64,000 bases of DNA from Diadema setosum (taxonomy: Eukaryota > Echinodermata > Echinoidea > Diadematoida > Diadematidae). Every line of letters starts with the position of its first letter. Position 1 is the first letter of the stretch. The DNA lies in assembly GCF_964275005.1 (NCBI RefSeq), contig NC_092702.1, forward strand, positions 2,221,001 through 2,285,000, read 5' to 3'. The notes under the pieces were generated by a model. The model saw only the letters and a program-made list of their open reading frames with translations. It did not search any database and was not told the origin of the DNA. Below, one piece after another: positions 6,923 to 51,949 of the stretch. A program made the position numbers and the translations under genes.

Positions 6923-7387
6923 CAACGGCGTAAATCCGTACTGAGGAGTGGGGGGGGGGGGGATGGTCACCATCACCACGATTACAAGCCCATAACCGGA
7001 CCGGCGCAGCCTTTGGGGGGGGGGGGGGGGAAGCTTGGTGCCCCCCCCCCCCCCACACACACACACGCACACACTTTACAGGGATCGGATGTCCCACTCT
7101 TTTGCATGAAATATAAAGTGGGAGAAAAGCGGCAGCAAAAATATGAAGACTTTTTATTCTTGTTGCTTTTTTTTTGCTTGTCAGATGACTTTTGGCGGAA
7201 AATCAGACCTTAAAAGTATGAAAACATTTTTTTTTTTTAAATACCAGTGAGAGGGAGCGGAACGACCGAACGGGGGGAGGGTATGGGGGGGGGGGTATCC
7301 CTCTTCCACACGTGGAAGATTTTGCATTTTTAGACCTGAAATTCAGCGATCTGGTGCACACTTTTGGTGAATTTTTTTTTTCTTTTC

Positions 7388-7782
7388 TTAAAGGGACTGT
7401 ACAGTACTGGTTGAGGTAGGGATTCATGTTTTGAACATTCCCAAGTGAGATAATGAAAAGCCTCTTATGAAATATGCAAGAGCATGTAATTTTAAGAAGG
7501 ATTCAACGTTTATTTGATGAAAATTGGTTTTCAAATGGCTGAGATACAAAAAAAAAAAAGTGCTAGTAATAAAAGGCGACATGCCCCAACTTTATTAGTA
7601 TCTCTTTGTTTCACTTTGTTTTTGGATATCTCAGCCATTTCAAAACCGATTTTCATCGAATAAACTTTTGATACCCCTTAGAACTGCATGCTCTTTGACA
7701 TCTCATAGAGTGGTTTCTGAATATCTCACAAAACGTTAAAAGCTAAATCTTCACCTCGACCACAACTGTACACACCCTTTAA
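7388..7782. mobile_element. Foldback MITE with TTAA ends, family A (395 bp), inside element 1
   Basis: Both edges are TTAA. The left edge reads TTAAAGGGACTGTACAGT. The right edge, on the other strand, reads TTAAAGGGTGTGTACAGT and continues TGTGGTCGAGGT, against TACTGGTTGAGGT on the left. The arms pair over most of the element (for example TGAAAATTGGTTTTCAAATGG against CCATTTCAAAACCGATTTTCA). It is absent from element 2, so it inserted after the two copies parted or element 2 lost this part. The TTAA target fits the piggyBac or Kolobok superfamilies. Confidence 0.85.
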
Positions 7783-8029
7783 AAAAAACAATAAGAAAAT
7801 TAAATATTCACAATATATTATTGAATGACTAAATCGAGGTATTTCAGCTCTTGCTCCACCTGTGCGACAACACTGTGAAGGCCTACTAAATAATGGGGCC
7901 TATCACCGGCGTAGACAGGATTTGATCTTAGGAGGAGCGGTTATGTGAGGGAGCGAAGCAAGCGAGGGGGGGGGGGAGGGTATGGTAGGGGAATTTCCCC
8001 CTCCCACGGTGAAATCTTTTTGCATTGAA

Positions 8030-11000
8030 AATTTTGACATTTTACAGTCCCCAAACTGTCGTTTGTAATTGTAACTATATTCTTCGCTTTGGAAATTAAG
8101 GGGGCGGGGGCGCACCGGGCGAAAACTGCTGGCAATTACTGGCAGCACCATCAGGAGAATGGCATAGCGATTAAATGCGAGCGAGCGAAGCGAGCGAGCT
8201 TGAAAATTTTAATATTTTACAGTCCCCAAACTGCCGTTTGTAGCTATATTTTTCGCTTTGGAAATTAAGGGGGGGGGGGGCGCACCGGGCGAAAACTGAT
8301 GGCAATTACTGGCAGCAACATCAGAAGAATGGAATAATGATTAAATGAGAGCGAGCGAAGCGAGCGAGCTTAAAAATGTTGATATTTTACAGTCCCAAAA
8401 CTGCCGATTGAAGCTATATTTTTCGCTTTGGAAACTAAGGGGGCGCACCGGGCGAAAACTGCTGGCAATTACTGGCAGCAACATCAGGAGAATGGAATAA
8501 TGATTAAATGCGAGCGAGCGAAAGAGAGCGAGCTAGAAAATTTTGACATTTTACAGTCCCAAAACTGCCGTTTGTAGCTATATTTTTCGCTTTGGAAATT
8601 ACGGGGGGTGCACCGGGCGAAAACTGCTGGCAATTACTGGCAGCAACATCAGGAGAATGGAATAATGATTAAATGTGAGCGAGCGAAGAGAGCGAGCTTG
8701 AAAATTTTGACATTTTACAGTCCCAAAACTGCCGTTTGTAGCTCTAGTTTTCGCTTTGGAAATTAAGGGGGCGCATCGGGCGAAAACTGCTGGCAATTAC
8801 TGGCAGCAACATCAGGAGAATGGAATAATGATTAAATGCGAGCGAGCGAAGCGAGCGAGTTTGAAAATTTTGACATTTTACAGTCCAAAAACTGCCGTTT
8901 GTAGCTATATTTTTCGCTTTGGAAATTACGGGGGGCGCACCGGGCGAAAACTGCTGGCAATTACTGGCAGCAACATCAGGAAAATGGAATAATGATTAAA
9001 TGTGAGCGAGCGAAGAGAGCGAGCTAGAAAATTTTGACATTTTACAGTCCCAAAACTGCCGTTTGTAGCTATAGTTTTCGCTTTGGAAACTAAGGGGGCG
9101 CACCGGGCGAAAACTGCTGGCAATTACTGGCAGCAACATCAGGAGAATGGAATGATGATTAAATGCGAGCGAGCGAAAGAGAGCGAGCTAGAAAATTTTG
9201 ACATTATTACAGTCCCCAAACTGCCGTTTGTAGCTATATTTTTCGCTTTGGAAATTAAGGGGGGGGGGGGCGCACCGGGCTAAAACTGCTGGCAATTACT
9301 GGCAGCAACATCAGGAGAATGGAATAATGATTAAATGCGAGCGAGCGAAAGAGAGCGAGCTAGAAAATTTTGACATTTTACAGTCCCAAAACTGCCGTTT
9401 GTAGCTATATTTTTCGCTCTGGAAATTACGGGGGGCGCACCGGGCGAAAACTGCTGGCAATTACTGGCAGCAACATCAGGAAAATGGAATAATGATTAAA
9501 TGTGAGCGAGCGAAGAGAGCGAGCTAGAAAATTTTGACATTTTACAGTCCCAAAACTGCCGTTTGTAGCTCTAGTTTTCGCTTTGGAAATTAAGGGGGCG
9601 CATTGGGCGAAAACTGCTGGCAATTACTGGCAGCAACATCAGGAGAATGGAATAATGATTAAATGCGAGCGAGCGAAGCGAGCGAGTTTGAAAATTTTGA
9701 CATTTTACAGTCCAAAAACTGCCGTTTGTAGCTATATTTTTCGCTTTGGAAATTAAGGGGGGCGCACCGGGCGAAAACTGCTGGCAATTACTGGCAGCAA
9801 CATCAGAAGAATGGAATGATTAAATGCGAGCGAGCGAAGAGAGCGAGCTTGAAAATTTTGACATCATTTTTACAATCCCCAAACTGCCGTTTGTAGCTAT
9901 ATTTTTCGCTATGGAAATTAAGGGGGCGCATCGGGCGAAAACTGCTGGCAATTACTGGCAGCAACCTCAGGAAAATGGAATAATGATTAAATGCGAGCGA
10001 GCGAAAGAGAGCGAGCTAGAAAATTTTGACATTTTACAGTCCCAAAACTGCCGTTTGTAGCTATATTTTTCGCTCTGGAAATTACGGGGGGCGCACCGGG
10101 CGAAAACTGCTGGCAATTACTGGCAGCAACATCAGGAAAATGGAATAATGATTAAATGTGAGCGAGCGAAGAGAGCGAGCTTGAAAATTTTGACATTTTA
10201 CAGTCCCAAAACTGCCGTTTGTAGCTCTAGTTTTCGCTTTGGAAATTAAGGGGGCGCATCGGGCGAAAACTGCTGGCAATTACTGGCAGCAACATCAGAA
10301 GAATGGAATGATTAAATGCGAGCGAGCGAAGAGAGCGAGCTTGAAAATTTTGACATCATTTTTACAATCCCCAAACTGCCGTTTGTAGCTATATTTTTCG
10401 CTATGGAAATTAAGGGGGCGCATCGGGCGAAAACTGCTGGCAATTACTGGCAGCAACCTCAGGAAAATGGAATAATGATTAAATGCGAGCGAGCGAAAGA
10501 GAGCGAGCTAGAAAATTTTGACATTATTACAGTCCCCAAACTGCCGTTTGTAGCTATATTTTTCGCTTTGGAAATTAAGGGGGGGGGGGGGCGCACCGGG
10601 CTAAAACTGCTGGCAATTACTGGCAGCAACATCAGGAGAATGGAATAATGATTAAATGCGAGCGAGCGAAAGAGAGCGAGCTAGAAAATTTTGACATTTT
10701 ACAGTCCCAAAACTGCCGTTTGTAGCTATATTTTTCGCTTTGGAAATTACGGGGGGTGCACCGGGCGAAAACTGCTGGCAATTACTGGCAGCAACATCAG
10801 GAGAATGGAATAATGATTAAATGCGAGGGAGCGAAGAGAGCGAGCTAGAAAATTTTGACATTTTACAGTCCCAAAACTGCCGTTTGTAGCTATATTTTTC
10901 GCTTTGGAAATTACGGGGGGCGCAACAGGCGAAAACTGCTGGCAATTACTGGCAGCAAAATCAGGAAAATGGAATAATGATTAAATGTGAGCGAGCGAAG

Positions 11001-11720
11001 AGAGCGAGCTAGAAAATTTTGACATTTTACAGTCCCAAAACTGCCGTTTGTAGCTCTAGTTTTCGCTTTGGAAATTAAGGGGGCGCATCGGGCGAAAACT
11101 GCTGGCACTTACTGGCAGCAACATCAGGAGAATGGAATAATGATTAAATGCGAGCGAGCGAAGCGAGCGAGTTTGAAAATTTTGACATTTTACAGTCCAA
11201 AAACTGCCGTTTGTAGCTATATTTTTCACTTTGGAAATTAAGGGGGGCGCACCGGGCGAAAACTGCTGGCAATTACTGGCAGCAACATCAGAAGAATGGA
11301 ATGATTAAATGCGAGCGAGCGAAGAGAGCGAGCTTGAAAATTTTGACATCATTTTTACAATCCCCAAACTGCCGTTTGTAGCTATATTTTTCTCTATGGA
11401 AATTAAGGGGGCGCATCGGGCGAAAACTGCTGGCAATTACTGGCAGCAACCTCAGGAAAATGGAATAATGATTAAATGCGAGCGAGCGAAGTGAGCGAGC
11501 TAGAAAATTTTGACATTTTACAGTCCCAAAACTGCCGTTTGTAGATAAATTTTTCGCTTTGGAAATTAAGGGGGGCGCACTGGGCGCAACTGCTGTCAGT
11601 CACTATCAGCAACATCAGGAGAATGGCATAGCGGTTAAATGCGAGCGAGCGGAGCGAGCGAGCTTGAAAATTTTGACATTTTACACTCCAAAAACTGCCG
11701 TTTGTAGCTATATTTTTCGC
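8030..11720. repeat. ~164-bp satellite array, about 22-23 units, in element 1
   Basis: The anchor ACAGTCC/ACAATCC recurs 23 times from 8044 to 11683, mostly 163-165 bp apart, with slips of 170-175 bp where a poly-G run is longer. A unit holds an ACTGCCGTTTGTAGCTATAT stretch, TTCGCTTTGGAAATTA, a G-run, GCACCGGGCGAAAACTG, the imperfect palindrome around CTGGCAATTACTGGCAG, and GCGAGCGAAGCGAGCGAG. Variant units (ACATCATTTTTACAATCC at 9872, 10364 and 11357; ACATTATTACAGTCC at 9209 and 10529) repeat as blocks, so the array grew by copying several units at a time. All small ORFs here are repeat artefacts. Confidence 0.95.
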
Positions 11721-12627
11721 CTTTGTTCGTCCCACTTTATCGGGGAACCATCCCCCCCCCCTCATCGACGCCTCTGCATATGAGGGTGCTTTTGTTAAGT
11801 GAAAGATCTGCTGCACACTCTTTGATAAATTAGGGAAATAATGCGTCAATGTCAAAAGCAATGTACAAAGTTTATCGAAAGGGATCCTGTATAGCGGAGA
11901 TTTTGCATGTTTATGATTGCAATACAACGATTTGGTGCAGAGTTCTGGCGATTTTTCGACAATTTTCCATTAAGAAAGTTCGAGAGTTGTCCTCATCTCG
12001 GGAATTGCTTGGGGGATAAATTATTTGTCTGCCTAAAACAAATGCCCCTTTGCCCCCCCCCCCCTATAGATTCGACGCCCCTGATCTTCCCTGGGTATGC
12101 CCATATCTATAGATGATAATGTATCCGGACTGAGTCATTAGTCACTGTCGTTTCTCAGGAATGATTCAGGAAATGGAGGGGGTTCAATTATGGCGATATA
12201 GTTTTTGTTATTGTTTGTTTGTTTGTTTTCGTACATATTTTGCAGATGGTCCCCAGTTACTCGCGTCATAGCATGTTTAGGCCTACATGTAGGCCTATAT
12301 TATATTGACGTTGTCAACGTCTGAGCCATACCTTACAGTGTATGTCAATGTTACTTTCTTCGCGAGCGAGCGAAGCGAGCGAGCGCTTAAGAAAATTATG
12401 TATACATTTTCCTACAAGATAGAATACTGTTCAGCTCTGTTACATGTTTGAAGGCCGGCGTACAAACGTCATGCAATATGCCAAAATTGATACAATCACA
12501 TTTCTGCTTCCTCCATTTTTTCCCCTCAAAATTCAGGGGGGATGATTGTACAGGCCATCCCCCCCTCCTCCATTTCAGGGGGGGATATATCCCCCCCCCC
12601 CCATCCCCCCCGGGATTTACGCCCATG

Positions 12628-12635
12628 CTTCCCGG
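12628..12635. repeat. Target-site duplication, right copy (CTTCCCGG)
   Basis: Perfect 8-bp match to 6915-6922, immediately after the element end GGATTTACGCCCATG. Confidence 0.92.
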
Positions 12636-14181
12636 TCAAGGGTACCGAATCGCCGAGTATCAGGTCGAAGACACGGCAAGTCTCGATCCTTGACGATCTT
12701 TTTCTCCGAGAGATCCAGATGAAGCAGTCGTAGAGTCTCCCCATCTCTCAGCAGGACCGCGGTCGTTTGTCCGCCTGGTGATTTTCCAACTCGAAGTTGA
12801 GATGGCTGGTGCTTCAGGTCAAGGGATATATATGGTGCCTAGAGGAGACCCATCTCTTGATAGTGTATCGAAGTGGCTGCGGTATAGCAGTGAAATGTTT
12901 CCATTGTGATCTATCGCCACTGAATTTGGTGTATCAGTATTGGCATCGTGCCGATTTAGTACCCTCTTGGTACGCTTATATTTGCTACGCTTATTTTTGC
13001 TTCGACTTGGCAGAGGTGCTGCATGTCCTTGGTTGTTGAGAACAATGATGGTATCTCTTGTCAAAAGGGTCATGTCTCTGATCGGCTCGTTTCCGACAGT
13101 GTGACTGAATTTTCCACTCCTCTCGTAGACTTTTCCATTTGGCTTATCGTGAAAACCGATGACTATTTTCTTATCCTCTAGTGTGATTACACTGGATGGT
13201 TTGGCCGTTTCCCTGTTCCCTTCGAGAGGAAAATGTTGCACGGGCCACTTTCTTACATACTTCATCATCCCCACACGGACAGTTAGTGGAATGCTTTCAA
13301 AAATGACATTGCTCTCGGGTTTGGTGATACATGAGTCAGTGTTCTTAGGCACGTTAGACAATGTTTCCTTGTTGCGCAAATAATCATTGCTTATGCTTTG
13401 GAACTGTTCTAATAGCTTTAGTTCATGGCCGTGATAAAGGCAAGTTTGAGCCATTTTATTTACTTCATCAATCGAACACGTTGCTTCCGTTTTTATCATA
13501 GATTCACTTTCCAGAGCAGATTCAAAATCATCTTTAATATCCTTCAATCTTTTCTTCATCACCAATTCCTCTTGATTCATTTCTTTCCTGGTCCTGGTGA
13601 AGGCCGTGCTAATCTTGCTCTCCATGTCATCGAAATATTGGTCGAGTGTTTTCTTTTGCGCTGCCTTGTCTGCCTGAAGACGTGCCACAGCAGTCTTGCC
13701 CCAGTCAAGGAGTTCATGCAAAACAGCCCTTCTCTTTGTTACAGTTTCATCAAAATGGAAACACTTCGTGTTCCTGGGGATCTCGATGATTTCTCATCCC
13801 ACATGTTGCGCAGATTGCAACCCTGCAAGATTCGCAGTGAAAGGTAGCCTTCTGTGGAGAGTCTTGGTCACAGTCTGTTCCTTGGCATGATATCATTCTC
13901 TTCCGCTCATCTTCAATTCCTCGAATTTTAGCAGCCATATTGTCAATAAAATAGCTACCTTCTAGTGTGGAGGGTTCACATTCCGTAACATCTTTACACA
14001 CTGGACATGAAAATGTGTATTCCAGGTCATCATCATAACTCGAAAACCGTCTTTTCCAAATGCATTCCTGGCAGAAGGAGTGCTAGCATGACATAAACTT
14101 GACCCTCCTGTACAGATCATTGCAAATGGCGCATTCTACTTCTTTTCGTAAAATTGTCAGAGGATCCCCCATGCCAGCCAT
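12636..14181 (-). pseudogene. TRIM-like gene, 5' part: RING, B-box, coiled coil, propeller-like region
   Basis: Minus strand, single exon, ATG at 14179-14181 (second Met at 14170-14172). The first ~55 residues form a RING: CAIC, then C-x-H, FCQEC and CPVC pairs. A B-box follows (about 13887-13755: CQGTDC, HCESC, ICATC, NH, EH), then a long coiled coil (about 13665-13370, DQYFDDMESKIS onward), then a region with repeated hydrophobic strands (VITLEDKKIVIGFHD, LLTRDTIIVLN, SVAIDHNGNIS, LLLRDGETLRLLHLDLSEKK) like a C-terminal propeller. As a family, TRIM proteins are E3 ubiquitin ligases, many acting in innate immunity. This copy is dead as it stands. A TAG lies inside the RING between C and H (14083-14085), an extra base near 13757 shifts the frame after the B-box, and a second shift lies near 12818. 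A transposon then separates the last ~120 codons (6541-6914). Some of the small lesions could be sequencing errors; the insertion cannot. Confidence 0.85.
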
Positions 14182-14655
14182 AATAAACCAGTTCACAGTT
14201 AGCACTAGTCTGTAATGACCTCTCCAACCACAGACTTTGCAAAACATGAAATGGTCTTCAAAAAGAGGCGTTCACCTGTAAATACCAATCTGCACCTGGT
14301 TCATTTATAACACAGTTGAAAATTGGACAGCCAGCTGCCAGAGCTTCGCCATTTTGTTCTTTGTAAGGAATGAAATCGATACAATAGTAGCCATGTATAC
14401 ATTGAACCATGATGCTGCTCGTTGTTGTGTTTTGTAGTCATGTCAACTTCCACCAAAAAGAATGGCGTCATGCCTTGTATTGTCTGCATGTGGCAATTAC
14501 CCTTAGCAACGGGCATCCTTCTCACAATGGGCTCATACAAGGCTCTTTCAATGTTAATTGCACGGCTTTCCACAATATTTGAATTACAGTAGAACTCAAA
14601 GTGGTTCTTACCACGAGAAAATTCGATTAGTATGGTTTAATTAGTTTTAAGCCTA
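14182..14655. other. Upstream flank of the TRIM-like gene, nothing recognised
   Basis: No clear TATA box, splice site or second gene is seen. A 90-codon minus-strand ORF at 14301-14573 has no recognisable domain and is probably chance. Confidence 0.5.
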
Positions 14656-14659
14656 TTAT

Positions 14660-14713
14660 ATGTAGTTATAAGGTTCATGCCATAGACCCGGGTTCGATTC
14701 CCGGCGGAGACCA
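14660..14713 (+). tRNA. tRNA-like 3' remnant (B box and T arm)
   Basis: CCGGG-TTCGATT-CCCGG forms a perfect 5-bp T stem with a 7-nt loop and contains the pol III B-box core GGTTCGATTCC. It is followed by CGGAGACCA and then a T-run. No matching 5' acceptor strand (GTCTCCG), A box or anticodon arm is found upstream, so this is not a working tRNA gene. It is a tRNA pseudogene or the head of a tRNA-derived SINE. Confidence 0.45.
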
Positions 14714-14771
14714 ATTTTTCAACTCTTGCACTTTTCGGGAAAGGATGGTGAGTGAGAGGAATAATGATTAT

Positions 14772-14915
14772 GTCATATCATATCATATAATATTATATTA
14801 TATTATATTATATTATATTATATTATATTATATTATATTATATTATATTATATTATATTATATTATATTATATTATATTATATTATATCATATCATATTA
14901 TATGATATGATATAA
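14772..14915. repeat. (ATATT)n pentanucleotide microsatellite
   Basis: About 25 near-perfect copies of TATTA, bordered on both sides by degenerate ATATC/ATATG units. Confidence 0.95.
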
Positions 14916-15416
14916 ACATCGAAATTGTCACACGGCTCGGTGTATTGATATATCAAAGGATATAAGGCGAATTTATCAGTCGGTGCGTGTTGAGGCGTTT
15001 AGACGGAACCTTGTGAACAAGTTGGTGTATGCAATGTCATTTATGACTTTTCCATCATGACTTAACAACAATTACAGTCCGCACGAACATCACTGCACAA
15101 AACATTGCCACCACTGCTGGGAGTATTAGAAGGATACTGCTGTATAAGCTGTTATTTTCTCGCGGGTTTAATTTTCGCGAATTTCGCGAATCTAAGTTGG
15201 ACAACGAATTCAACAACACGCGAAAATGTCACCTATACTCTAATGTAGTACATGTAGTGCGTTATGAAGGCCTCTGTGTCAATTCGCGAAAGCAGCATCT
15301 CGCGAAAATGTCTGTGACCTCGTCATTCACGAAAATATCTGTACGCGAAAATAACAGCGTATACAGAGTAGATGAATACACTGTACATCAGTCTGGTGCG
15401 TTGATTACGATGATAT
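14916..15416. other. Intergenic, TTCGCGAA-type repeats, no gene seen
   Basis: Several TTTTCGCGAA-like words occur at 15165-15350 on both strands (CTCGCGGGTTT, TTCGCGAATTTCGCGAA, GCGAAAATG), probably a decayed foldback repeat. No coding evidence. Confidence 0.5.
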
Positions 15417-15420
15417 ACTA

Positions 15421-16673: not shown

Positions 16674-17044
16674 TAGTACTTGTTGCGGCATACAGACGTG
16701 TGTTAACGAGTGGGGATATATACAAGATATGTGTGTACGTATGTGTGAGTGTCTGGCATGGGTCATGACCCTGTGTAAAGGAACGATGTGCTATCCGAAA
16801 TGCACTTGCAAAATACTTTATGCTCTTTATTCAAAACGACATTTAATTCACAAGGAATTCTATTAAAAAAAATGAAAACAGCATTCATGAAAGACTAGGC
16901 TTACTAAAATTACTCAACGTAGGGGGCCTACTTGTAGGCTGGTACATGCTTACGAATTCCTCATTAACAATTTCCGGTTGTTTGTACTGCATGAATTATA
17001 GTAAATGCTAAGAACGCTTCAAGCTGGCGACGCTGATTTTTCCC

Positions 17045-18924: not shown

Positions 18925-21226
18925 TTAAGATGTAGCTACCTGAGCTTCTGTTGCATTGTCGGGACAATACGCTTTATTATCAGCCTCTGGTGCGACTTTC
19001 ATCGACAAGTGAATCTTGTCTTCCAGGGGTTCCTTCTCAACAACCGAAACCGGTCTCAGGATCTGTTTGAGCAGCATGCAAGAAACGGCGACTCCAACGG
19101 CGAAGAAAAGCATGAAAAACATCATCAGGGTGATGATGCCGGCTTTCCAGTCGAGCAGCTGGACGAGAACGGAGACGACCATGAGGATGGCATAGGTGAA
19201 GACGACGCCGCAGATGTACAACGCTTCCTTAACGGGACTCGGCGGTCGGAACGATTCGTCCGCACGGTCAGCTTTGATCTTCTTTTCGATCCAGAGGAAG
19301 AACCACATCACCAACCAGGCGAACAAGACACAGAAGTACTCAATGGCGGGAATTCGTACCATTTCGTTGAGACGGATCCAATAGCGCCCTCGTCGATCGG
19401 TAAACACCCATCCGAAACAATAGATCCCCGCGGCGAGGTAGGCGATGAAGGGAAAAGCTCGAGTCCACTTTGGAACTTTGGTCCAAAGTGGGAGTCCGAA
19501 GAGCTGGGTCATGGTGAAGAGCCAGAGGAAGCCAAACATGAACATAGGGTAGAGCGTCGACCTGTTAAGAGCTGGACCGCCAGTTTGCCAGGCAACCACC
19601 GTACCGTGGATGATTACCCATGCCTCGAGGAGAAGGCGCCAGTAGCGATTCAGATGGAACTGGGTATACATTAGACTTCCCTGCAGCAGAAACATCCAGG
19701 TGTGCGTGAAACCCATGACGTGTCCAATGGTGTTTTCCATTGGATGGTGCCAGAAAGTGAAGATAGCTCCCCAGGCGAAGACATACCCGTGGTACCTCCG
19801 GATCAGTTCCTGAGGCCCCCAAGGAAGTCTCATCTTCTCGCTGATCTTACCCTGGTCATCCTTCGAAGGCCACCCAAACGCCATCCCGCGGTTGCGGTAC
19901 TCCAGCATCAAGACAAAGATTAGCAGCATGATAGCTGATCCGATGTTGCTTGGACCAGAGACATCCTGAGCCAGAGCATCGTAAGTCCAGTGGGTCTGAC
20001 CCAGATGAATCAGATGAAACACAATGTTACCGATGAAAGCGATCCAGTTGAAATTTCTCATGCGCGAAGAGTATTTTGGCTCTCCAGGCTGAGGATAAAT
20101 CAACTTCAGCTTCTGGGCGTAGTAGATGCAACCCCACATAAAGAGCTGATGGAGAACGTAGCACAGCCAGGGAACGACCCGAGTGAGAACACTCACTTCA
20201 TTTGGCTTCAGCTTCCAGTAGTACCACCTTGCACCGGCGTCGGTGCCGTACCGACCCCTGACGCCGGGTTCCTCCACGTAGGGTTCAGAGAGGAAGCGAA
20301 CGGCGGAGGTCTCGCTGGTGTTGTGAGTCCACCCCGAGTCGGCGTCCCATCGACGAACGTTGCCGATGTAGACAACGCCGAGGAGGAAGACGCCAATGAA
20401 GATGACACCAACCAACCAGACGACGACATCCCAGGGAAACACTTTGGCCTCCAGACCCTGCAAATGTGACAAAGTTATTTGATGATTGCACAGCGTTCAG
20501 CCTTGAGAGATCATGAACTGTAAAAATACGTCAAAAGATCGATGAAGAAAGAAGTAATTTGGATGTTGGCAACCGTTTGACGTTTTAGTGGCATTAATAA
20601 AATGAGGTATGGAATATTGTACACACTGTATATAATTATATTCCAATTTATGTTGTGTTTGCGCTGTACGAAACACTTGCGAATCATTTCAATGAGAATA
20701 TATGCAACATAAGTGTTCTGAGGTTCAAGAGTGTTACCGATGTCACGCATGCACTTATTATTATTTTTTTTTTCATTTTCCAAACCCGTATCGCTCGATT
20801 GTCGTAATATAAAGATAATGGCACACTTGCGTACGTCTATCCTGTTTCCCCTAGTTCGTATAAAACTTAGGTCAGAAATCAACTCAGTCTGTAGGTCTTC
20901 AAACAAACAGCCGGTACACCTGAATTTTGCTATTATAGTACTGACTGTCAGACTACAGAAGATAGAATACAGCCCAATTACTTGTCTAAAATCCGATTAC
21001 GCCAGCGTCTCTCCTCAAAATCGTTTTTATCTCTTGCTGGCTTTGTATTTTTGATGATTTGATCATAATCGGAAATGAAACTAAGACAAAGTTTCAGAGA
21101 TTTATTGTAAAAGCAGTTATCACCCTTTACAAGTAAAGTAAAGTAAGTAATGTTAACTCTTGAAAAAAAAGCTTCTCTTACCTCTTTATTCTTCTTTTCA
21201 GTGCTTTCTGCTGTAGGGACCGTCAT
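18925..21226 (-). CDS. Polytopic (~12 TM) histidine-rich membrane protein, paralogue 1
   Basis: Two coding exons on the minus strand. Exon 1 is 21226-21182 (ATG, 15 codons, MTVPTAESTEKKNKE) and ends at donor GTAAGA. Exon 2 is 20457-18925 after acceptor TTTGCAG and ends in TAA; the junction is phase 0. The protein is about 525 aa. An acceptor-like TTTCAG at 21248-21253 just before the ATG suggests a further 5' UTR exon. About 12 hydrophobic segments are visible. After TM1 comes a loop with a possible N-glycosylation site (NTS). The core holds histidines in or beside membrane segments: HLIHLGQTHWTY, WHHPMENTIGH, GFTHTW, FHLNRYWR and IIHGTVVAW. Such a set could bind a metal or haem, but that is only inference. 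I do not recognise the family. The same protein is encoded at 33058-35698. The coding exon is clearly more GC-rich than the DNA around it. Confidence 0.9.
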
Positions 21227-33057: not shown

Positions 33058-35235
33058 TCAAGACTTCTTTTCCGTGTCGGCCAAAAACGCGGCGTTGTCA
33101 AATTCTGGCGCCACCTTGGCACCACTATTGTTGCTTGGAATGTCACTCGTGTAATCGGCAGGTGGAATGATCTGTTTCAACAACATGCAGGTCACTGCTA
33201 CTCCGACAGTGAAGATGAGGACGAAGATGACCATGAGGGCGATCAGATCCATCTTGACGTCGAGGACCTGTACAAGGACGGCAATGACTACCATTAGAGC
33301 GTAGATGAAGACGACACCGGACACGTACAGGATCTCTTTGACAAGACTAGGAGTCTGGAACGGCTGATTAAGTTTCTCAGCTGAGATTTTCTTTTCGACC
33401 CAGAGGAAGAACCACATCACAAACCAGGCAATCAGGACGCAGAGATATTCGGTTGCTGGAATTCGAATCATCTCGTTCATGCGGATCCAGTAGCGTCCTT
33501 CCTTGTCGTAAAACACCCAGCCATACGCGCCGATCCCGGCGCCAATGTATGCGATGAATGGCAAGAAGTAGGTCCAGCGCGGCAGGAGTTTCCAAATGGG
33601 AAGACCGAAGAGTTGAGTCATGGTGAAAAGCCAGAGGAAGCCAAACATGAACATTGGGTAGAGCGCTGTGCCGTTGAGGGCTGGGCCACCGGTTTGCCAG
33701 GCAACCACCGTACCGTGGATGATTACCCATGCCTCAAGGAGAAGGCGCCAGTAGCGATTCAGGTGGACCTGTGTGTACATGAGACTTCCCTGCAGCATGA
33801 ACATCCAAGTGTGAGTGAACCCAAGGGCGTGTCCAACAGTGTTCTCCATCGGGTGGTACCAGAACGTGAAGATTGCAGCCCAGGAGAAGGCATAGCCATG
33901 GTATTTGCGAATGAGTTCCTGTGGACCCCATGGAAGCCGGACTTTGTTGCTGATTCGACCGACGTCGTCTTTCGAAGGCCACCCGAACGCCATACCTCGG
34001 TTCCTGTACTCAATCATCAAGACAAACATGAGGAGCATGATCACAGAACCCTGGGAGCTCGCCTCCGAGACGTCCTGTGCCAAGGCGTCGTACGTCCAAT
34101 GTGTCTGCCCAAGATGAAACACATGGAACACCATGTTGCCAATCAGAGGAATCCAGTTGAAGTACTTCATATTGGTCGAGTACTTCGGGTCTCCAGGAGT
34201 CGGGTAAAGATTCTTACTCCGCTGAGCGTAGTAGATACACCCCCACATGAAGAGCTGGTGTAAGACGTAGCAGATCCAGGTGATACTCCGGGTGAGTGCG
34301 GTGACTTCATCGGGCGGCAGCTGCCAGTAGTACCATCTAGCTGTGGCCCCCGACCCGTGTCTTCCTGGGACGCCGGGTTCTTCCTCGAAGGGTTCCGGAA
34401 GGAACCTTTCCTGCGAGCTTTCGCTGAGATTGTGATCATATCCGGAGTCTGCATCCCATCCCCGGTAGTCTCCGATGAAGATCATGGCAATGAGGATGCA
34501 AGTGATGAAGACAACACCGATGACCCATCCCACAACGTCCCATCTGAAGCCGGTATCTGCCGACTGAAACAACAAAGGAATATTGAGAACAAAACAGCAT
34601 CTACAGTTCTGCTACGAATGTAGAAATATATGATAAAAACCGTTTGTATCTCCTCCCATATTAGCTGAGATTTCAGTCACTATCCCTCAAGAAATTGTCA
34701 TTTGCGAATAGATAAGCGACTTGATTAACAAGTTCATTGCCGTCTCTCATGCAGTGTCTTTACAATTGAAATGGTGAAATTTAAGTCACTAAAGAGTTAC
34801 AACGATGCTTATAACATTTCTATTCTAGTTGAACCTAAGTGTTATAATGTCTATTTAAAGTTGCTCTTAAGAAATCATGAAAGAATTGTCTTCTTTAAAA
34901 TGTTGTATAGCATAAAAAAATCGGGCATTCATGTGATGTAAACAGACGTGATACTTAACACAGATTCAATGGAAAATTGGGATATAAGCAAGAAGGCAGA
35001 AGTATTATTTTCACTCACCTTCGTGAGGCTGGATGGTGTTGATAAGGAAGCAGCAGATACTCCATTACTCTTCCCCGTGCCGTTGGAATCTGTGTGTAGA
35101 TATAAAAAGTAATCGCAATATGATTATTCGTGTTATTCTTTGTATATGATTGTGTGGATGTGTATGAAAGTAATAGAAGTACTCAGAATGGGATAACTCT
35201 TGTAGACGCACGCGCGCGAGTCTGCGTGTGTGTAT

Positions 35236-41849: not shown

Positions 41850-42581
41850 AATGATACACATCTGATTTGCCATTTGCAGATGAAACAAAAACCCATAGCA
41901 TATAGTGCTTTAGAATAGTTCTAAAATGTGGGTTAGGGATAGAAACAACCACTGTAAAAATATGAATCCGTAAAATTGATGTTAAGTATTGTTAAATATA
42001 CAAAACGTGAATAATAGTTATAATAAAAATGTTTCCAGACTAAACGGTCTACAGTTACGGTTTACTGAGAAAAATACAGAAATCTCCTTATATTTTATGC
42101 TTTATCGCGAAAATTTTACATGATAGTATGTTTTGTGGCACAACAGACCTACACATATGCATTAAATGTTGTATCTTAAAATTTTTTTAAATCACCGTTC
42201 CCAAAGGTATACTGGTCTTTAAAGGTCTACCTTTGGGAGCGGTGATTTTAAAAATGTTCAAGATGTCGCATTTGATGCATATGTGTAGGTCTGTTGTGTC
42301 ACAAAACATCCTACCATATAAGATTTTTGCAATAAAGCCTAAAATATAAGGAGATATTGGTATTTTTCTCATTAAACCATAACTGTAGACGATTTAGTCT
42401 GGAACATTTTTTATTATAACTATTGCTCATATTGTGTGTATTTAACAATATTTAACATATATTATACGGATTCAAATTGTTACAGTGGTTGTTTCTATCC
42501 CCAACTCACATTTTAGAACTATTTTAAAACACTAATACTGAGTTTTTGTTTCATTATGCAAATGGTAAATTGTGCCTTTAA
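41850..42581. mobile_element. Two TTAA MITEs (family D) head to head
   Basis: The right copy is 42219-42581: TTAAAGGTCTACCTTTGGGA to GGTAAATTGTGCCTTTAA. The left copy, about 41850-42222, is its reverse complement and shares the central TTAA. Shared phrases include GATGCATATGTGTAGGTCTG and CAGTGGTTGTTTCTATCCC and their mirror images. Its left edge is degraded. The same family lies in the satellite array at 48292-48658. Confidence 0.85.
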
Positions 42582-44727
42582 TATAATCTTGGAAACATTT
42601 TGGATGCCCTTTAAGCCGTTACTCATCTTCAGCCTTGGACTCGTTTATTTTGCAATCATCAAATATTAACCAGTCTTAGCAACAGACCTAGCACGCCAGC
42701 TGTCATAAAACCTTGCCAAATTAGATTTCAATGCAGATAGCACAGCTATGCCAGCGGTCATTCGTTGACCAAGGGGAGGATTTAAGAAATGCTTCGAAAT
42801 GTCACTAAATTGTTTCTAAATTACTGAAATCTAATATATCAATAGCAGGGAATAGAGTTATCACTCTGGGTTAGGCATGATGCTGTGTCCAATTACATTG
42901 TACTTGCTCGCCACCAAAAAAAAAAAAAAAAAAAAAAAAAAGCGTGCAAGACCACGATGTCCGACTCAAAGGACGAGGAGTTACGTAATCACTCAATAGG
43001 CATACGTTTCCCTCAGGATAAAATAACAAAGCACACGGATAAGATCTAGTTGATAACAAGGCCGCAAGCATGCTTATAATACTGGGATCCCTTATGTCTC
43101 GTTTGACCGATCTGCCTAATTTATAGATCGTGGCTTCGCGACAACATGAATCTTTCGAAACGATTTTATCTTGCGATGTAACGTCATGTTGACAGCACAA
43201 GTGATATATTGATTATCTCGTAATTCTTTGGTTTCTTGTTTGTTTATTTATTCTGCATTTCACATTAAAAAGTACACAGAACAATACATGAATCATACAT
43301 AAATCAAAGAAAGGTGACAAAATGGATGGATTGCCCATTTCAGATTCGCTATTATAATGATTCTGTTCTTCCATTGGGATCCAGTCACATCATTATTTTG
43401 ACGCAACATGCAACAACATAAAGCTCCCATCAAAGTTTCGAAATCAGTTTTTGTGCTGACATAAGCAGCTTCAGTCTTTAATATCAGCTTACTCAAATAG
43501 AGAAGATTATTGTGTATAGTTATTAATCATGATAATTATACTCTATAATGAGAACAGGATCATGACTGTAGAATTTTTCTTTTTTTCATTGAGATGAAAG
43601 CTGAAAAAAAAAACCGACCAAACTAATGAAGATTGGAAAGTGGGGGAACTCGAGTCAGTCCATGCATGTTCTAATTGACTCGCATGACAAGAATAAAGTA
43701 CTAGTAAAACCGGGAGAATACATAACAAAATGTCGGCAGAACAATAATCATTATGTCCATAATACGCCACTAAAATCACCTCGTTGAATAAGGGAATACT
43801 TCCACCTCCCTGGGAGTGATAACCTGTTTCGTTACTCATTATGTTTCCACAATGATTTGATGCAAATCACATGATGTCATGTTGTCAGAGAAATAGAAGG
43901 ATTGGTTTAAAAAAAAAGTCAGTGAGACGTTCGTGAGACGTGTAATTCCCATCATAAAGATCAGACAGCACTAGGCTGCTTTACTAAACAGGTGCAACCT
44001 TCAAACGGATATTCCGAAACAGCCTATATAATCATGTGACTTTTCTTCTGGACTGAGTTTACTTCAGTTGCTTGCTAAGTTGTTAGTTGTTGTAAGTCAA
44101 AGCTGGTAATGGATTGAAATACCTTTGATTTCGACTTGCGTTGACTTCTTGTGGCCATTTTGTCCGGCGATGTGTTTTTCCTCATCCACCCTCGAATCGA
44201 CCACGCTTACAAGCTCAACAGAATTGTTATCTTTCGATGTCATCTTCGATCATCTGCTGTCATCTGCAATGAATATCCAAAAATAATATTTCCCTCTACC
44301 ACAAGCTCACAACCAGGTATAAACGGTAAACAATACGGCAGTATTTTTTTTTAAACAGATATACAGTATGTTATAGCTGCAGAGATCTGGTCCAATCGCG
44401 ATGATGACGTTATGGCGTATGGCGTTTCTCGCGAAATCTACAACATTATAGTGCATATCTATAGATGAAGAACAATTTCAATACTGCGAAAAGCGCAGTT
44501 GCCCAAACGGTGACATGGTATTGTTGTATAGGCACAAAGAAAACTGACATGAATAAAATCATATTCGTCAGTCCACTGATGATGATGAATAGCACACATA
44601 GCTTCGTGCACACACTGAACATTCAACGTGAATGTGCGCAGAACGCATCAATAGGCGAATGGGAAAAGCTCCTCTATACCTCAATGTTCAATTTATACTA
44701 CAGCTGTATCGAATAACAGAGGGAGAT
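42582..44727. other. Intergenic, poly-A at ~42916-42941, no supported gene
   Basis: ORFs of 63-109 codons carry no domains. The ~26-nt A-run could be a decayed retroposon tail but has no body that I recognise. Confidence 0.45.
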
Positions 44728-44840
44728 AGATAGATAGATAGACAGATAGATAGATGGATGGATAGACAGATAGATAGATACATACATTGTACATACATAC
44801 ATACATACATACATACATACATACATACATACATACATAG
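44728..44840. repeat. (GATA)n and (CATA)n microsatellites
   Basis: TAGA repeats from 44728 to about 44780, interrupted by GACA and GGAT variants, then CATA repeats from 44790 to 44840. Confidence 0.95.
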
Positions 44841-44938
44841 AAACATGTATAGATAGGTGAATATTGTAGATATATACAAATATATGTATATAGTTTGAGT
44901 TAAACAGTGAAGTACGACATAATCCTTGCATTATCATA

Positions 44939-45018
44939 ATGAATTCAATCAACGTAATGGCATAGCATACCGCTATAGCGGTATGCTACATGTATGCCAT
45001 TACGTTGATTGAATTCAT
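44939..45018. repeat. 80-bp double palindrome
   Basis: A perfect 26-bp inverted repeat (ATGAATTCAATCAACG at the outer edge, 44939-44964 against 44993-45018) encloses a second perfect palindrome of 22 bp (GCATACCGCTATAGCGGTATGC without its mirror spacer, 44965-44986) and the 6 bases TACATG. Confidence 0.93.
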
Positions 45019-46528
<1,510 letters not shown>

Positions 46529-46574
46529 TTAAAGGGGGATGGAGCCCAAATAATATGATGCGAATTGAGGGACT

Positions 46575-46582
46575 GTAGAAAT
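46575..46582. repeat. Target-site duplication, left copy (GTAGAAAT)
   Basis: Perfect 8-bp match to 51950-51957, abutting the element end CATGGGCGTAAATCC. Confidence 0.92.
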
Positions 46583-47449
46583 CATGGGCGTAAATCCCGG
46601 GGGGGATGGAGGGGGGGATATATCCCCCCCTGAAATGGAGGAGGGGGGGATGGCCTGTACAATCATCCCCCCCTGAATTTTGAAGAAAAAAAATGGAGGA
46701 AGCAGAAATGTGATTGTATCAATTTTGGCATATTGCATGACGTTTGTACGCCGGCCTTCAGACAGGTAACAGAGCTGAACAGTATTCTATCTTGTAGGAA
46801 ATCGAATGCATAATTTTCTCAAGCGCTCGCTCGCTTCGCTCGCTCGCGGACATGGACATACACTGTAAGGTATGGCTCAGACGTTGACAACGTCAAATAG
46901 TGTAGGCCTACATATAAACATGCTAAGACGAGAGTAACTTGGGACCATCTGCAAAATATGTACGAAAACAAACAAACAAACAATAACAAAACTATATTGC
47001 CATAATTGAACCCCCTCCATTTCCTGAATCATTCATGAGGAACGACAGTGACTGATAATTCAGTCAAGATACATCTGTGGGTATACCCAGGGAAGATCAG
47101 GGGCGTCGAAAATATCTCGGGGGGGGGGGGGGCAAAGGGCATTTGCCCCGCCCCTACGAAAGTGTTTAGGCAGGCAAATCATTTATCCCCCAAGCAATTT
47201 CCGAGATGAGGACAAATTTCGAACTTTCTTAATGGAATTATTGTCCAAATACCGCCAGAACTTTGCACCAAATCGTTGAATTGCAATCATAAACATGCAA
47301 AAGCTCCGCTATACTGGATCCCTTTCGATAAGTACACTGTTGAGATTGACGTATATTTCCCTAATTTGTCAAAGAGTGTGCAGCATATCTTTCACTTAAC
47401 AAAAGGTCCCTCATATGCAGAGGCGTCGATGGGGGGGGGGATGGTTCCC

Positions 47450-50400
47450 CCATAAAAGTGGGACAAACCAAATCGCAAAAATATAGCTAAAAACGGCGGT
47501 TTTTGGGGTGTAAAATGTCAAAATTTTAAAGCTCGCTCGCTCCGCTCTCTCGCATTTAAGCGCTAAGCCATTCCCCTGATGTTGCTACCAGTGATTGACA
47601 GCAGTTGCGCCCGGTGCGCCCCCCCCCCCCCTAATCTCCAAAGCAAAAAATATAGCTACAAATGGCAGTTTGGGGGACTGTAAGATGTCAAAATTTTTCA
47701 AGCTCGCTCGCTTCGCACACTCGCATTTAATCATTATGCCATTCTCATGATGTTGCTGCCATAAATTGCCAGCAGTTTTCCCCCGGTGCTCCCCCTTAAT
47801 TTCCAAAGCTAAAAATAAAGCTACAAACGGCAGTTTTTGGACTGTAATAAGTCAAAAATTTTGAAGCTCGCTAGCTCCGCTCGCTCGGATTTAATCATTA
47901 TGCCATTCTCCTGATGTTGCTGCCAGTAATTGCCAGCAGTTTTCACCCGGTGTGCCTCCCCTTAATTTCCAAAGCGAAAAAACACAGCTACAAACGACAT
48001 TTTCTGGGATTGCAAAATGTCAAAATTTTAAGGCTCGCTTGCTCCGCTCGCTCGCATTTAATCGCTATGGCATTCTCCTGATGTTGCTGCCAGTGATTGA
48101 CAGCAGTTGTGCCCGGTGCGTCCCTTTTAATTTCCAAAGCGAAAAATATAGCTACAAATGGCAGTTTTGGGGACTGTAAGATATCAAAATTTTCAAGCTC
48201 GCTCGCTTCGCACACTCGCATTTAATCATTATGCCATTCTCATGATGTTGCTGCCAGTAATTGCCAGCAGTTTTCGCCCGGTGCTCCCCCCTTAAAGGTC
48301 CAGTTTACCTTTGGGAGCAGTGATTTCAAAAATGTTCAAGATATCACATTTGATGCATATGTGTAGGTCTGTTGTATCACAAAACATCCTACTATATAAA
48401 ATTTTTGCAATAAAGCCTAAAATATGAGGAGATATCAGCATTTTTCTCAATAAACCATAACTGTATACGGTTTAGTCTGGAAGCATTCTTATTATAACTA
48501 TTGTTCACATTTTGTGTATTTAACAATACTTAACATCAATTATACGAATTCAAATTTTTACAGTGGTTGTTTCTATCCCTAACTCACATTTTAGAACTAT
48601 TTTAAAGCACTAATGTTGGGTTTTTGTTTCATCTGCAAATGGTAAATTATGCCTTTAATCTCCACAGCGAAAAACATAGCTATAAACGGCAGTTTTGGGA
48701 CTGTAAGACGTCAAAATTTTGAAGCTCGCTTCACTCACTCGCATTTAATCATTATGCCATTCTCCTGATGTTGCTGCCAGTTATTGCCAGCAGTTTTCGC
48801 CCGGTGCTCCCCCCCCCCTTAATTTCCAAAGCGAAAAATATAGCTACAAACGGCAGTTTTGGGACTGTAATAAGTCAAAATTTTGAAGCTCTCTCGCTTC
48901 GCTCGCTTGCATTTAATCATTATGCCATTCTCCTGATGTTGCTGCCAGTAATTGCCAGCAGTTTTCGCCCGGTGCTCCCCCTTAATTTCCAAAGCGACAA
49001 AATACAGCCACAAACGACAGTTTGGGGGACTGTAAAATGTCAAAATTTTCAAGCTCACTCGCTTCGCTCGCTCGCATTTAATCGTTATGCCATTCTCCTG
49101 ATGTTGCTGCCAGTACAAACTGCCAGCAGTTGCGCCCTGTGCGCCCCCTTAATTTCCAAAGCGAAAAAATACAGCCCAAAACGGCAGTTTTTTTTTACTG
49201 TAAAATGCCAAAATTTTCAAGCTCACTCGCTTCGCTCGCTCGCATTTAATTGTTATGCCATTCTCTTGATGTTGCTGTCAGTAATTGCCAGCAGTTTCAC
49301 CCGGTGCCCCCCCCCCCCTTAATTTCCAAAGCTAAAAATAAAGCTACAAACGGCAGTTTTGGGACTGTAATAAGTCAAAAATTTTGAAGCTCGCTTGCTC
49401 CGCTCACTCGCTCAATCATTATGCCATTCTCCTGATGTTGCTGCCAGTAATTGCCAGCAGTTTTCGCCCGGTGCTCCCCCCTTAATCTCCACAGCGAAAA
49501 ATATAGCTACAAACGGCAGTTTTGGGACTGTAAGATGTCAAAATTTTGAAGCTCGCTTCACTCACTCACATTAATATGCCATTCTCCTGATGTTGCTGCC
49601 AGTTATTGCCAGCAGTTTTCGCCCGGTGCTCCCCCCCCCCCCTTAATTTCCAAAGCGAAAAATATAGCTACAAACGGCAGTTTTGGGACTGTAATAAGTC
49701 AAAATTTTGAAGCTCGCTCGCTTCGCTCGCTCGCATTTAATCATTATGCCATTCTCCTGATGTTGCTGCCAGTAATTGCCAGCAGTTTTCGCCCGGTGCT
49801 CCCCCTTAATTTCCAAAGCGACAAAATACAGCCACAAACGACAGTTTGGGGGACTGTAAAATGTCAAAATTTTCAAGCTCACTCGCTTCGCTTGCTCGCA
49901 TTTAATCGTTATGCCATTCTCCTGATGTTGCTGCCAGTACAAACTGCCAGCAGTTGCGCCCTGTGCGCCCCCTTAATTTCCAAAGCGAAAAAATACAGCC
50001 CCAAACGGCAGTTTTTTACTGTAAAATGCCAAAATTTTCAAGCTCGCTCGCTTCGCTCGCTCGCATTTTATTGTTATGCCATTCTCCTGATGTTGCTGCC
50101 AGTAATTGCCAGCAGTTTTCGCCCGGTGCTCCCCCCTTAATCTCCACAGCGAAAAATATAGCTACAAACGGCAGTTTTGGGACTGTAAGATGTCAAAATT
50201 TTGAAGCTCGCTTCACTCACTCACATTAATATGCCATTCTCCTGATGTTGCTGCCAGTTATTGCCAGCAGTTTTCGCCCGGTGCTCCCCCCCTTAATTTC
50301 CAAAGCGAAAAATATAGCTACAAACGGCAGTTTTGGGACTGTAATAAGTCAAAATTTTGAAGCTCGCTCGCTTCGCTCGCTCGCATTTAATCATTATGCC

Positions 50401-51715
50401 ATTCTCCTGATGTTGCTGCCAGTAATTGCCAGCAGTTTTCGCCCGGTGCTCCCCCTTAATTTCCAAAGCGACAAAATACAGCCACAAACGACAGTTTGGG
50501 GGACTGTAAAATGTCAAAATTTTCAAGCTCACTCGCTTCGCTCGCTCGCATTTAATCGTTATGCCATTCTCCTGATGTTGCTGCCAGTACAAACTGCCAG
50601 CAGTTGCGCCCTGTGCGCCCCCTTAATTTCCAAAGCGAAAAAATACAGCCCCAAACGGCAGTTTTTTACTGTAAAATGCCAAAATTTTCAAGTTCGCTCG
50701 CTTCGCTCGCTCGCATTTTATTGTTATGCCATTCTCTTGATGTTGCTGTTAGTAATTGCCAGCAGTTTCACCCGGTGCCCCCCCCCTTAATTTCCAAAGC
50801 TAAAAATAAAGCTACAAATGCCAGTTTTGGGACTGTAATAAGTCAAAAATTTTGAAGCTCGCTCGCTCCGCTCACTCGCTCAATCATTATGCCATTCTCC
50901 TGATGTTGCTGCCAGTAATTGCCAGCAGTTTTCGCCCGGTGTGCCTCCCCTTAATTTCCAAAGCGAAAAAATGCAGCTACAAACGACATTGTCTGGGATT
51001 GCAAAATGTCAAAATTTTAAGGCTCGCTTGCTCCGCTTGCTCGCATTTAATCGCTATGGCATTCTCCTGATGTTGCTGCCAGTGATTGACAGCAGTTGTG
51101 CCCGGTGCGTCCCCTTTAATTTCCAAAGCGAAAAATATAACTACAAATGGCAGTTTTGGGGACTGTAAGATGTCAAAATTTTCAAGCTCGCTCGCTTCGC
51201 ACACTCGCATTTAATCATTATGCCATTCTCATGATGTTGCTGCCAGTAATTGCCACCAGTTTTCGCCCGGTGCTCCCCCTTAATTTCCAAAGCTAAAAAT
51301 AAAGCTACAAACGGCAGTTTTGGGACTGTAAAATGTCAAAATTTTCAAGCTCACTCGCTTCGCTCGCTCACATTTAATCGTTATGCCATTCTCCTGATGT
51401 TGCTGCCAGTACGAACTGCCAGCAGTTGCGCCCTGTGCGCCCCCCTTAATTTCCAAAGCGAAAAACATACAGCCCAAAACGGCAGTTTTTTTTTTTTTTT
51501 TTACTGTAAAATGTCAACATTTTCAAGCTCGCTCGCTTCGCTCGCTCGCATTTAATTGTTATGCCATTCTCTTGATGTTGCTGTCAGTAGTAATTGCCAG
51601 CAGTTTCACTCGGTGCCCCCCTTAATTTCCAAAGCGGACAAAATACAGTCACAAACTGCAGTTTTGGGACTGTAAAATGTCACAATTTTCAAGCTCGCTT
51701 GTAACAGTTTGTCAG
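47450..51715. repeat. ~164-bp satellite array in element 2 (inverse orientation)
   Basis: Same unit as 8030-11720 on the other strand: GGCAGTTTTGGGACTGTAA, AAGCTCGCTCGCTTCGCTCG, GCCATTCTCCTGATGTTGCT, TTGCCAGCAGTTTTCGCCCG. Larger blocks repeat: units with the variant CTCCACAGCGAAAAA start near 48659, 49487 and 50140, and a block containing GTGTGCCTCCCC occurs at about 47950 and 50940. One unit is interrupted by a MITE at 48292-48658. Overlapping small ORFs on both strands are artefacts. Confidence 0.95.
48292..48658. mobile_element. TTAA MITE (family D, 367 bp) inserted in a satellite unit
   Basis: Ends TTAAAGGTCCAGTTTACC and (other strand) TTAAAGGCATAATTTACC. The host unit reads GGTGCTCCCCCCTTAA on one side and TTAATCTCCACAGCG on the other, while the intact neighbour at 49470-49500 reads CCCCCCTTAATCTCCACAGC. 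So the insertion duplicated TTAA exactly. Same family as 42219-42581. Confidence 0.93.
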
Positions 51716-51949
51716 AAATATATCACTCTCCTCCCACTTTATATTTCATGCAAAAGAGTGAGACATCCGATCCCTGTAAAGTGTGTGTGTGTGTGTGTGT
51801 GTGTGTGGGGGGGGGGGGTTACCAAGCTTCTCTCACCCCCCGTCCCCCTCAAGGCTGCGCCGGTTCGGTTATGGGCTTGTAATTGTGGTGATGGTGACTA
51901 TCGCCGATCATCCCCCCCCCCCACTCCTCAGTATGGATTTACGCCTTTG

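What the first reader, a model, noticed from the sequence alone, without database searches (positions are those of the whole stretch)
6923..51949. A family of hAT-type transposons that carry whole satellite arrays, with two fully delimited copies
Both copies show 15-bp inverted ends (CANNGGCGTAAATCC), perfect 8-bp target duplications (CTTCCCGG; GTAGAAAT) and 20 or more units of a ~164-bp satellite, with no transposase. Established knowledge: 8-bp TSDs with CA...TG ends mark hAT (and P) transposition; satellite-bearing mobile elements known to me in bivalves (pearl/Helentron type) lack TIRs and TSDs of this kind. Inference: a satellite is being spread by cut-and-paste transposition, seeding arrays at new loci.
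Basis: partly seen in the sequence, partly recalled or inferred. Interest (0 to 1): 0.9.

Follow-up and report, generated by a model that had tools for sequence, protein, structure and literature searches.

The report
Satellite arrays riding several hAT transposons
In this genome, whose species we were not told, blocks of tandemly repeated "satellite" DNA appear to be scattered because they sit inside cut-and-paste jumping genes of the hAT type, and the same satellite is carried by at least three different families of them.

Summary
Both copies have the stated ends, perfect 8-bp target duplications and about 22-25 units of a 164-bp satellite. Genome-wide the ends occur 2,458 times (reversed-pattern control 5). 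Of 40 paired copies examined, 31 have a perfect 8-bp duplication and one 7/8 (cross-pair control 2 of 1,560), and 39 carry the array. One copy has a related empty site in this window. For 294 of 366 array units the closest unit lies in another copy, mostly in matching order, so arrays are inherited as blocks.

The finding goes further than reported. The same satellite sits in at least two more families with different ends and 8-bp duplications. Of 34 satellite clusters on 28.6 Mb of one chromosome, 32 lie beside ends of one of the three families. The window's other, 274-bp array lies in a fourth element of this type. An 8.6-kb element bounded by family-1 ends holds hAT transposase domains. Relic inner ends suggest that arrays change vehicle through nesting and outer-end capture; that step is inferred. 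Precedents exist in Vaccinium, oyster and Xenopus.

The parts
6923..12627 (+). Family-1 element, copy A (left end CAACGGCGTAAATCC, right end read inward CATGGGCGTAAATCC)
6915..6922 (.). Target duplication CTTCCCGG, left copy
12628..12635 (.). Target duplication CTTCCCGG, right copy
8027..11725 (+). 164-bp satellite array of copy A, 22.4 units
   Evidence: TRF; unit scan
7904..8026 (+). Relic inner left end in copy A, homologous to the left end of the 274-bp-array element (72%, E 7e-18)
11752..11776 (-). Relic inner hAT-like right end R1 (CAGAGGCGTCGATGAGGGGG read inward)
12053..12083 (-). Relic inner hAT-like right end R2 (CAGGGGCGTCGAATC read inward)
46583..51949 (-). Family-1 element, copy B (inverted)
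46575..46582 (.). Target duplication GTAGAAAT, one copy
51950..51957 (.). Target duplication GTAGAAAT, other copy
47477..51699 (-). 164-bp satellite array of copy B (TRF 47477-48295 and 48655-51699)
47098..47132 (+). Relic inner end R2 in copy B
47418..47440 (+). Relic inner end R1 in copy B
1..3237 (+). Fourth hAT-type element, carrying the 274-bp satellite; it begins 115 bp before the window (C18:2220886), 3,352 bp in all, ends CAACGGCGTAGCCAGG / CACTGGCGTAGCCAGG
3238..3245 (.). Right target duplication CCCGGAAC of the fourth element; the left copy directly precedes the end at C18:2220886
57247..57538 (.). Related empty site of family-1 copy L019: 278 of 292 bases match the joined flanks, with one CTGTTGTA

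Best explanation
The two copies are non-autonomous hAT-type transposons that carry a 164-bp satellite array as internal cargo and move it whole by cut-and-paste transposition. Shown: matched ends, 8-bp duplications with a hAT-like target preference, an empty site, block inheritance of the array, and an element with the same ends that holds hAT transposase domains. Shown: the same satellite sits in at least two further families with different ends and 8-bp duplications, and hardly outside these vehicles in the stretch examined. Inferred: the transposase is supplied in trans by an element like the 8.6-kb one on C1. Array length then changes by duplication or loss of blocks of a few units. Inferred, about 0.5: arrays pass from one vehicle to another when one element inserts in or beside another and an outer pair of compatible ends mobilises both, leaving the old ends as relics inside.
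For: Ends 2,458 against a control of 5. Perfect duplications 31 of 40, cross-pair control 2 of 1,560. Array in 39 of 40 copies. Empty site, 278 of 292 bases. T at duplication position 2 in 22 of 31, p 5e-6. Nearest neighbour of a unit in another copy 294 of 366, mean nearest identity 96.6% against 84.2% mean within arrays; 252 of 366 units collinear against at most 151 in 200 random matchings. 8,565-bp element C1:36265484-36274048 with family-1 ends, duplication ACCCAAAC, DUF4371 E 2.4e-19 and hAT dimerisation E 5.9e-10. Families 2 and 3: duplications 8/8 in 5 of 6 fetched loci, 7/8 in the other. Family-2 left ends 632, family-3 right ends 372, controls 0. 32 of 34 clusters beside vehicle ends. 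Relic ends inside families 1, 2 and 3.
Against: Eight of 40 pairs lack a matched duplication (one is off by a base, one is the inner part of the 8.6-kb element). The 40 were chosen for exact ends at both sides, so intact copies are favoured. Only 1 of 31 joined flanks found an empty site, in the sequence held. Nine of 33 exact family-1 ends on C1:0-28.6 Mb have no satellite word within 5 kb. Copy A's units are mostly closest to each other (20 of 22), so local amplification also occurs. The 8.6-kb element has a second left end inside and is the only close copy of its transposase, so it could be a chance composite. Of the 20 loci of the DUF4371 search, none has an exact family-1 end in its fetched flanks and one (L053) a two-mismatch one; the 8.6-kb element was recognised from neighbouring places. 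No movement was observed.
Confidence: 0.85

Rival explanations
1. The satellite spreads on its own (circular DNA, recombination) and the hAT ends were captured around arrays by insertion next to them.
For: Two of 34 clusters show no vehicle end, and in one cluster two of four words lie just beyond the right end of L011. Copy A's array looks locally amplified.
Against: Internal position shared by most copies, block inheritance, 8-bp duplications outside the whole unit, and vehicles predict 7,170 exact words (bootstrap 5,782-8,676) against 6,385 observed.
Confidence: 0.05
2. The elements belong to another 8-bp-duplication superfamily (P or similar), not hAT.
For: 8-bp duplications and CA..TG ends are not unique to hAT (recalled). 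No transposase frame was seen in the array-bearing window copies.
Against: The only coding element found with these ends carries DUF4371 and the hAT dimerisation domain; the target preference fits the hAT type (the nTnnnnAn consensus is recalled). P-type transposase families were not searched.
Confidence: 0.08
3. The satellite arose independently in each vehicle, or was present in a common ancestor of the three families, without any switching of vehicle.
For: Each unit's nearest neighbour stays in its own family for 365 of 366, 28 of 28 and 6 of 6 units, so exchange is not ongoing.
Against: Unit consensuses are nearly the same across families while non-array parts of representatives share only short matches. 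Family 3 holds a relic family-2 left end before its array, and family 1 a relic of the 274-bp element's left end.
Confidence: 0.25
4. The 8.6-kb element is not the autonomous partner but a host gene of hAT origin caught between two family-1 ends.
For: Single close copy, split open frames, a second inner left end.
Against: 8/8 duplication ACCCAAAC outside the outer ends, and the outer left end differs from the array-bearing copies beyond the first ~40 bp, as in a separate lineage.
Confidence: 0.3

Closest known systems
VaccSat3 in Vaccinium DNA transposons (PMC7290377; passages read)
   Same: One satellite in tandem inside three DNA transposon families with target duplications; the authors suggest independent capture by different transposon types and possible dispersal
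   Different: 3-bp and 9-bp duplications, four units drawn, plants; here 8-bp hAT-type families, arrays to ~25 units, block inheritance, and nearly all examined clusters in vehicles
Crassostrea gigas satellites in Helitrons (PMC8268682, passages; review PMC12628747, passages)
   Same: Short scattered satellite arrays inside mobile elements; the review notes the same array type across different Helitron elements
   Different: Rolling-circle elements; here inverted ends and 8-bp duplications, cut-and-paste
miDNA4 and Xstir MITEs of Xenopus, and DTC84 of Donax (reviewed in PMC12628747 and PMC9659126, passages; DTC84 details recalled, its paper is not held)
   Same: Non-autonomous inverted-repeat elements with internal tandem arrays; miDNA4 arrays vary in copy number
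   Different: miDNA4 is Tc1/mariner; one vehicle each as far as read; here three vehicles share one satellite
Merlin transposons with internal tandem repeats (PMC8101967, passages)
   Same: Cut-and-paste elements with tandem repeats inside, proposed to spread proto-satellites
   Different: Different superfamily; no array-level tracking in the passages read

Membership tests
hAT superfamily | 8-bp target site duplication | tested here: met
   31 of 40 perfect, 1 of 40 at 7/8; control 2 of 1,560; empty site
hAT superfamily | Short inverted ends beginning CA | tested here: met
   Exact ends in all 40 pairs, which were selected on them; families 2 and 3 come from six loci chosen for the satellite, not for their ends
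hAT superfamily | Target preference nTnnnnAn (consensus recalled) | tested here: met
   T at position 2 in 22 of 31 (p 5e-6); A at position 7 only 14 of 31 (p 0.07)
hAT superfamily | hAT transposase encoded between the ends of an autonomous member | tested here: met
   One 8,565-bp element with family-1 ends: DUF4371 and Dimer_Tnp_hAT, a composite with a second inner left end. No autonomous member is known here for families 2, 3 or the fourth element
hAT superfamily | Transposase cuts and inserts these ends | not testable with these tools
   Needs an excision assay
P superfamily | P-type transposase with these ends | not tested
   No P family was searched
Helentron / pearl type | No inverted ends with target duplications (recalled) | tested here: not met
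   Inverted ends and 8-bp duplications present
Classical stand-alone satellite DNA | Arrays existing mainly outside mobile elements | tested here: not met
   32 of 34 clusters on C1:0-28.6 Mb beside vehicle ends; word accounting. Unassembled heterochromatin not covered
Tc1/mariner MITE (miDNA4-like) | TA target duplication (recalled) | tested here: not met
   8-bp duplications

The most novel reading that the evidence does not exclude
A satellite born beside a hAT end has become a cargo that outlives its carriers. The unit contains a 15-bp stretch found just inside a hAT-like end within family 2 (maximum in 300 shuffles 11). It switched between hAT families by nesting and outer-end capture, so that one array lineage has been spread by at least three vehicles (about 2,400 counted ends) while old ends pile up inside as fossils. 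Vehicles may keep the array because its units hold transposase-binding or end-like sequence that helps transposition.
Probability: 0.35. Interest if true: 0.8.

Novelty: new variant of a known kind. Interest (0 to 1): 0.56.

Why it matters
How satellite arrays get dispersed through a genome is often argued from association. Here the unit-by-unit relatedness of arrays at sites with their own target duplications shows arrays being copied whole, and the same satellite in several vehicles gives a layered record of vehicle change. It turns 'transposons spread satellites' into something countable: vehicle, site, array length and unit order for each copy.

Tried and rejected
The 20 loci of the PF14291 search were checked for family-1 ends in their fetched flanks: no exact one, one with two mismatches facing away in L053; the transposase link came from the element on C1 recognised by place. 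A PDB search with the hAT dimerisation frame gave 0 matches. The N-terminal frame and two middle frames of that element gave no Pfam match above cut-off. Pfam for three window ORFs gave nothing. Comparing non-array parts of one representative per family gave only short matches, the clearest being the relic family-2 left end in family 3. A unit tree put all 34 family-2 and -3 units in a clade of 38 leaves with support 0.0, so it decides nothing. The 15-bp unit match near a family-2 inner end stands out from shuffles, but the same test on the outer left end gave 9 bases, within chance. Flanking duplications for the inner relic ends of family 1 did not match by eye. Paired CA..GGCG ends with duplications around the 20 DUF4371 loci: none. 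The copy number of the fourth element could not be counted: the search did not complete.

Full report
Check of the observation. Both copies are as described: 6923-12627 and 46583-51949, exact CANNGGCGTAAATCC ends, perfect duplications CTTCCCGG and GTAGAAAT, and a ~164-bp array of about 22-25 units. A scan of the window for CA..TG pairs with 8-bp duplications and similar ends returned these two plus one weak 7/8 pair. In the assembly that holds the window (912,680,840 bp, 102 contigs) the end pattern occurs 1,222 + 1,236 times, the reversed pattern 0 + 5.

Copies elsewhere. The listing showed 100 of these places, on C1 and C2. I took the facing pairs I recognised: 38 elements (76 of the 100 places), plus the two in the window. 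Of these 40, 31 have a perfect 8-bp duplication (two of them in GT repeats), L034 has 7/8, L016 is off by one base, L031 is the inner part of a larger element, and 6 others do not match. Cross pairs between copies reach 7/8 or more in 2 of 1,560. The selection on exact ends favours intact copies. 39 of 40 carry the array; its first unit begins 236-1,193 bp from the left end (21 of 39 at 700-760) and its last ends 770-990 bp from the right end in 30 of 39. L018 lacks it and holds an ORF that I read as reverse transcriptase. Lengths run from 1,559 to 12,602 bp, median 3,437. I tested joined flanks of the 31 copies with perfect duplications against the sequence then held. Those of L019 match window 57247-57538 at 278 of 292 bases with a single CTGTTGTA, an empty site, and three other loci also span that junction; none of the other 30 gave a spanning match. 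The duplications prefer T at position 2 (22 of 31, p 5e-6); A at position 7 is weaker (14 of 31, p 0.07).

Whole arrays move. From 39 elements I took 366 near-full units. The closest unit lies in another element for 294 of 366; mean nearest identity is 96.6%, whereas the mean within an element is 84.2% and between elements 82.7%. Matching each element to its best partner, 252 of 366 units fall in increasing order; 200 random matchings gave a mean of 138.5 and a maximum of 151. L026, L027a and L027b, each with its own duplication, share an almost identical array (99.8-99.9%). Copy A is the exception (20 of 22 nearest units in itself), so local amplification happens too, or its close relatives were not sampled. 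In five of the six arrays I looked at, nearest units inside one array often lie 4-5 or 8-9 apart, which suggests duplication of blocks of units.

Who supplies the transposase. A genome search for DUF4371 gave 20 matches. One lies inside C1:36265484-36274048, bounded by family-1 ends with duplication ACCCAAAC (GTTTGGGT on the + strand). Its open frames, in order on one strand, include DUF4371 (E 2.4e-19) and Dimer_Tnp_hAT (E 5.9e-10); that they are exons of one gene is inferred. The next two matches to the DUF4371 frame in the genome are 39% and 45% identical and carry stops. The element also has a second left end inside, followed by a short array and the shared right end, so it is a composite that, by its duplication, moved as one unit. 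That it drives the family is inferred.

More vehicles. Satellite clusters without exact family-1 ends were fetched at six places. L070, L072, L073 and L074 are family 2 (ends CAGTGGCGTACCGTGG / CAGTGGCGTAACTAC; 2,247, 2,532, 1,949 and 2,546 bp; duplications 7/8, 8/8, 8/8, 8/8). L071 and L075 are family 3 (ends CAGGCGCGCCGGAAG / CATAGGCGCCGGAAG; 1,317 and 1,513 bp; both 8/8). In L070-L073 no family-1 left or right sequence was found apart from one 45-bp match in L070 that falls inside its array. Genome counts: family-1 right ends 689 + 709, family-2 left ends 309 + 323 (both up to 3 mismatches), family-3 right ends 191 + 181 (up to 2), controls 0.

Where the satellite lies. An exact 19-base satellite word occurs 3,186 + 3,199 times; the first 100 places, C1:0-28.6 Mb, were listed. 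I made 34 clusters of them: 14 within 5 kb of a family-1 end and 9 family 2 (eight by a left end within 2.5 kb, one by fetched sequence); 9 family 3 (two by fetched sequence, seven by a listed family-3 right end within 2 kb); 2 unassigned. Ten of the family-1, four of the family-2 and two of the family-3 clusters were fetched; the others are assigned by nearness alone. Thirty-four random places gave on average 0.3, at most 3, near family-1 ends; no such control was run for families 2 and 3. In one cluster (4162499-4166720) two of the four words lie beyond the right end of L011. Conversely, 24 of 33 exact family-1 ends in that stretch, 8 of 9 family-2 left ends and 9 of 9 family-3 right ends lie beside a cluster. 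Genome-wide, vehicles predict 7,170 exact words (bootstrap 5,782-8,676; rates from 40 family-1 copies and nine places each for families 2 and 3) and 6,385 are observed, so no free pool is needed in the assembly; unassembled heterochromatin remains open.

Nested history. Family-1 copies hold inner hAT-like right ends (R2 in 37 of 40, R1 in 14 of 40, with up to three mismatches; positions). They also hold, in 30 of 40, an inner left end whose counterpart in copy A aligns with the left end of the element carrying the window's 274-bp array (72%, E 7e-18). That element starts 115 bp before the window: its duplication plus left end, CCCGGAACCANNGGCG, occurs once in the genome, exactly there (reversed-pattern control also 1, so the place, not the count, is the evidence). 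Family 3 has a relic family-2 left end before its array. Family 2 has an inner end CAGTGGCGGATCCAG read inward, followed by a 15-bp stretch that also occurs in copy A's array (maximum in 300 shuffles 11; the same test on family 2's outer left end gave 9, within chance), which hints that the unit arose beside a hAT end. Units still cluster by family (365 of 366, 28 of 28, 6 of 6), so captures were rare, not continuous.

Known and new. Satellites inside transposons are documented: Helitrons in oyster (PMC8268682), miDNA4 (PMC12628747, PMC9659126), Merlin (PMC8101967), and one satellite in three DNA transposon families in Vaccinium (PMC7290377); I read passages only. My searches (two showed 15 of 41 and 8 of 64) listed no paper whose title or abstract start shows hAT elements carrying satellite arrays like this. 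They cover open-licence papers only, and most listed papers were not opened. The new part is scale, hAT-type cut-and-paste, tracking of whole arrays, and layered vehicle change. I file it as a new variant of a known kind.

Noticed in passing
18925-20472 and 33058-34575 (- strand): Two similar long ORFs (515 and 505 aa) of a membrane-like protein, apparently a duplicated gene pair; no Pfam match.
   Followed up: partly
L061, L062, L063, L065: Four loci with DUF4371 ORFs nearly identical over ~3 kb (99.0-99.8%), which look like recently moved hAT copies of another family.
   Followed up: partly
L022 with L023, and L045 with L046: Two family-1 copies over 11 kb with long extra inserts and perfect duplications; the inserts were not identified.
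   Followed up: partly
L018: Family-1 copy that lost the array and holds a 383-aa reverse-transcriptase-like ORF (the reading is mine, not a family search).
   Followed up: no
C1:3628326-3629145 and C1:20582547: Two satellite clusters without listed ends of the three families; possibly a further vehicle or decayed copies.
   Followed up: no
L027: Two family-1 copies lie ~110 bp apart in opposite orientation with arrays 99.8% alike and separate duplications, as if from a local jump.
   Followed up: partly
6553-6720: Seven copies of a 24-bp repeat lying in an open frame just left of copy A.
   Followed up: no
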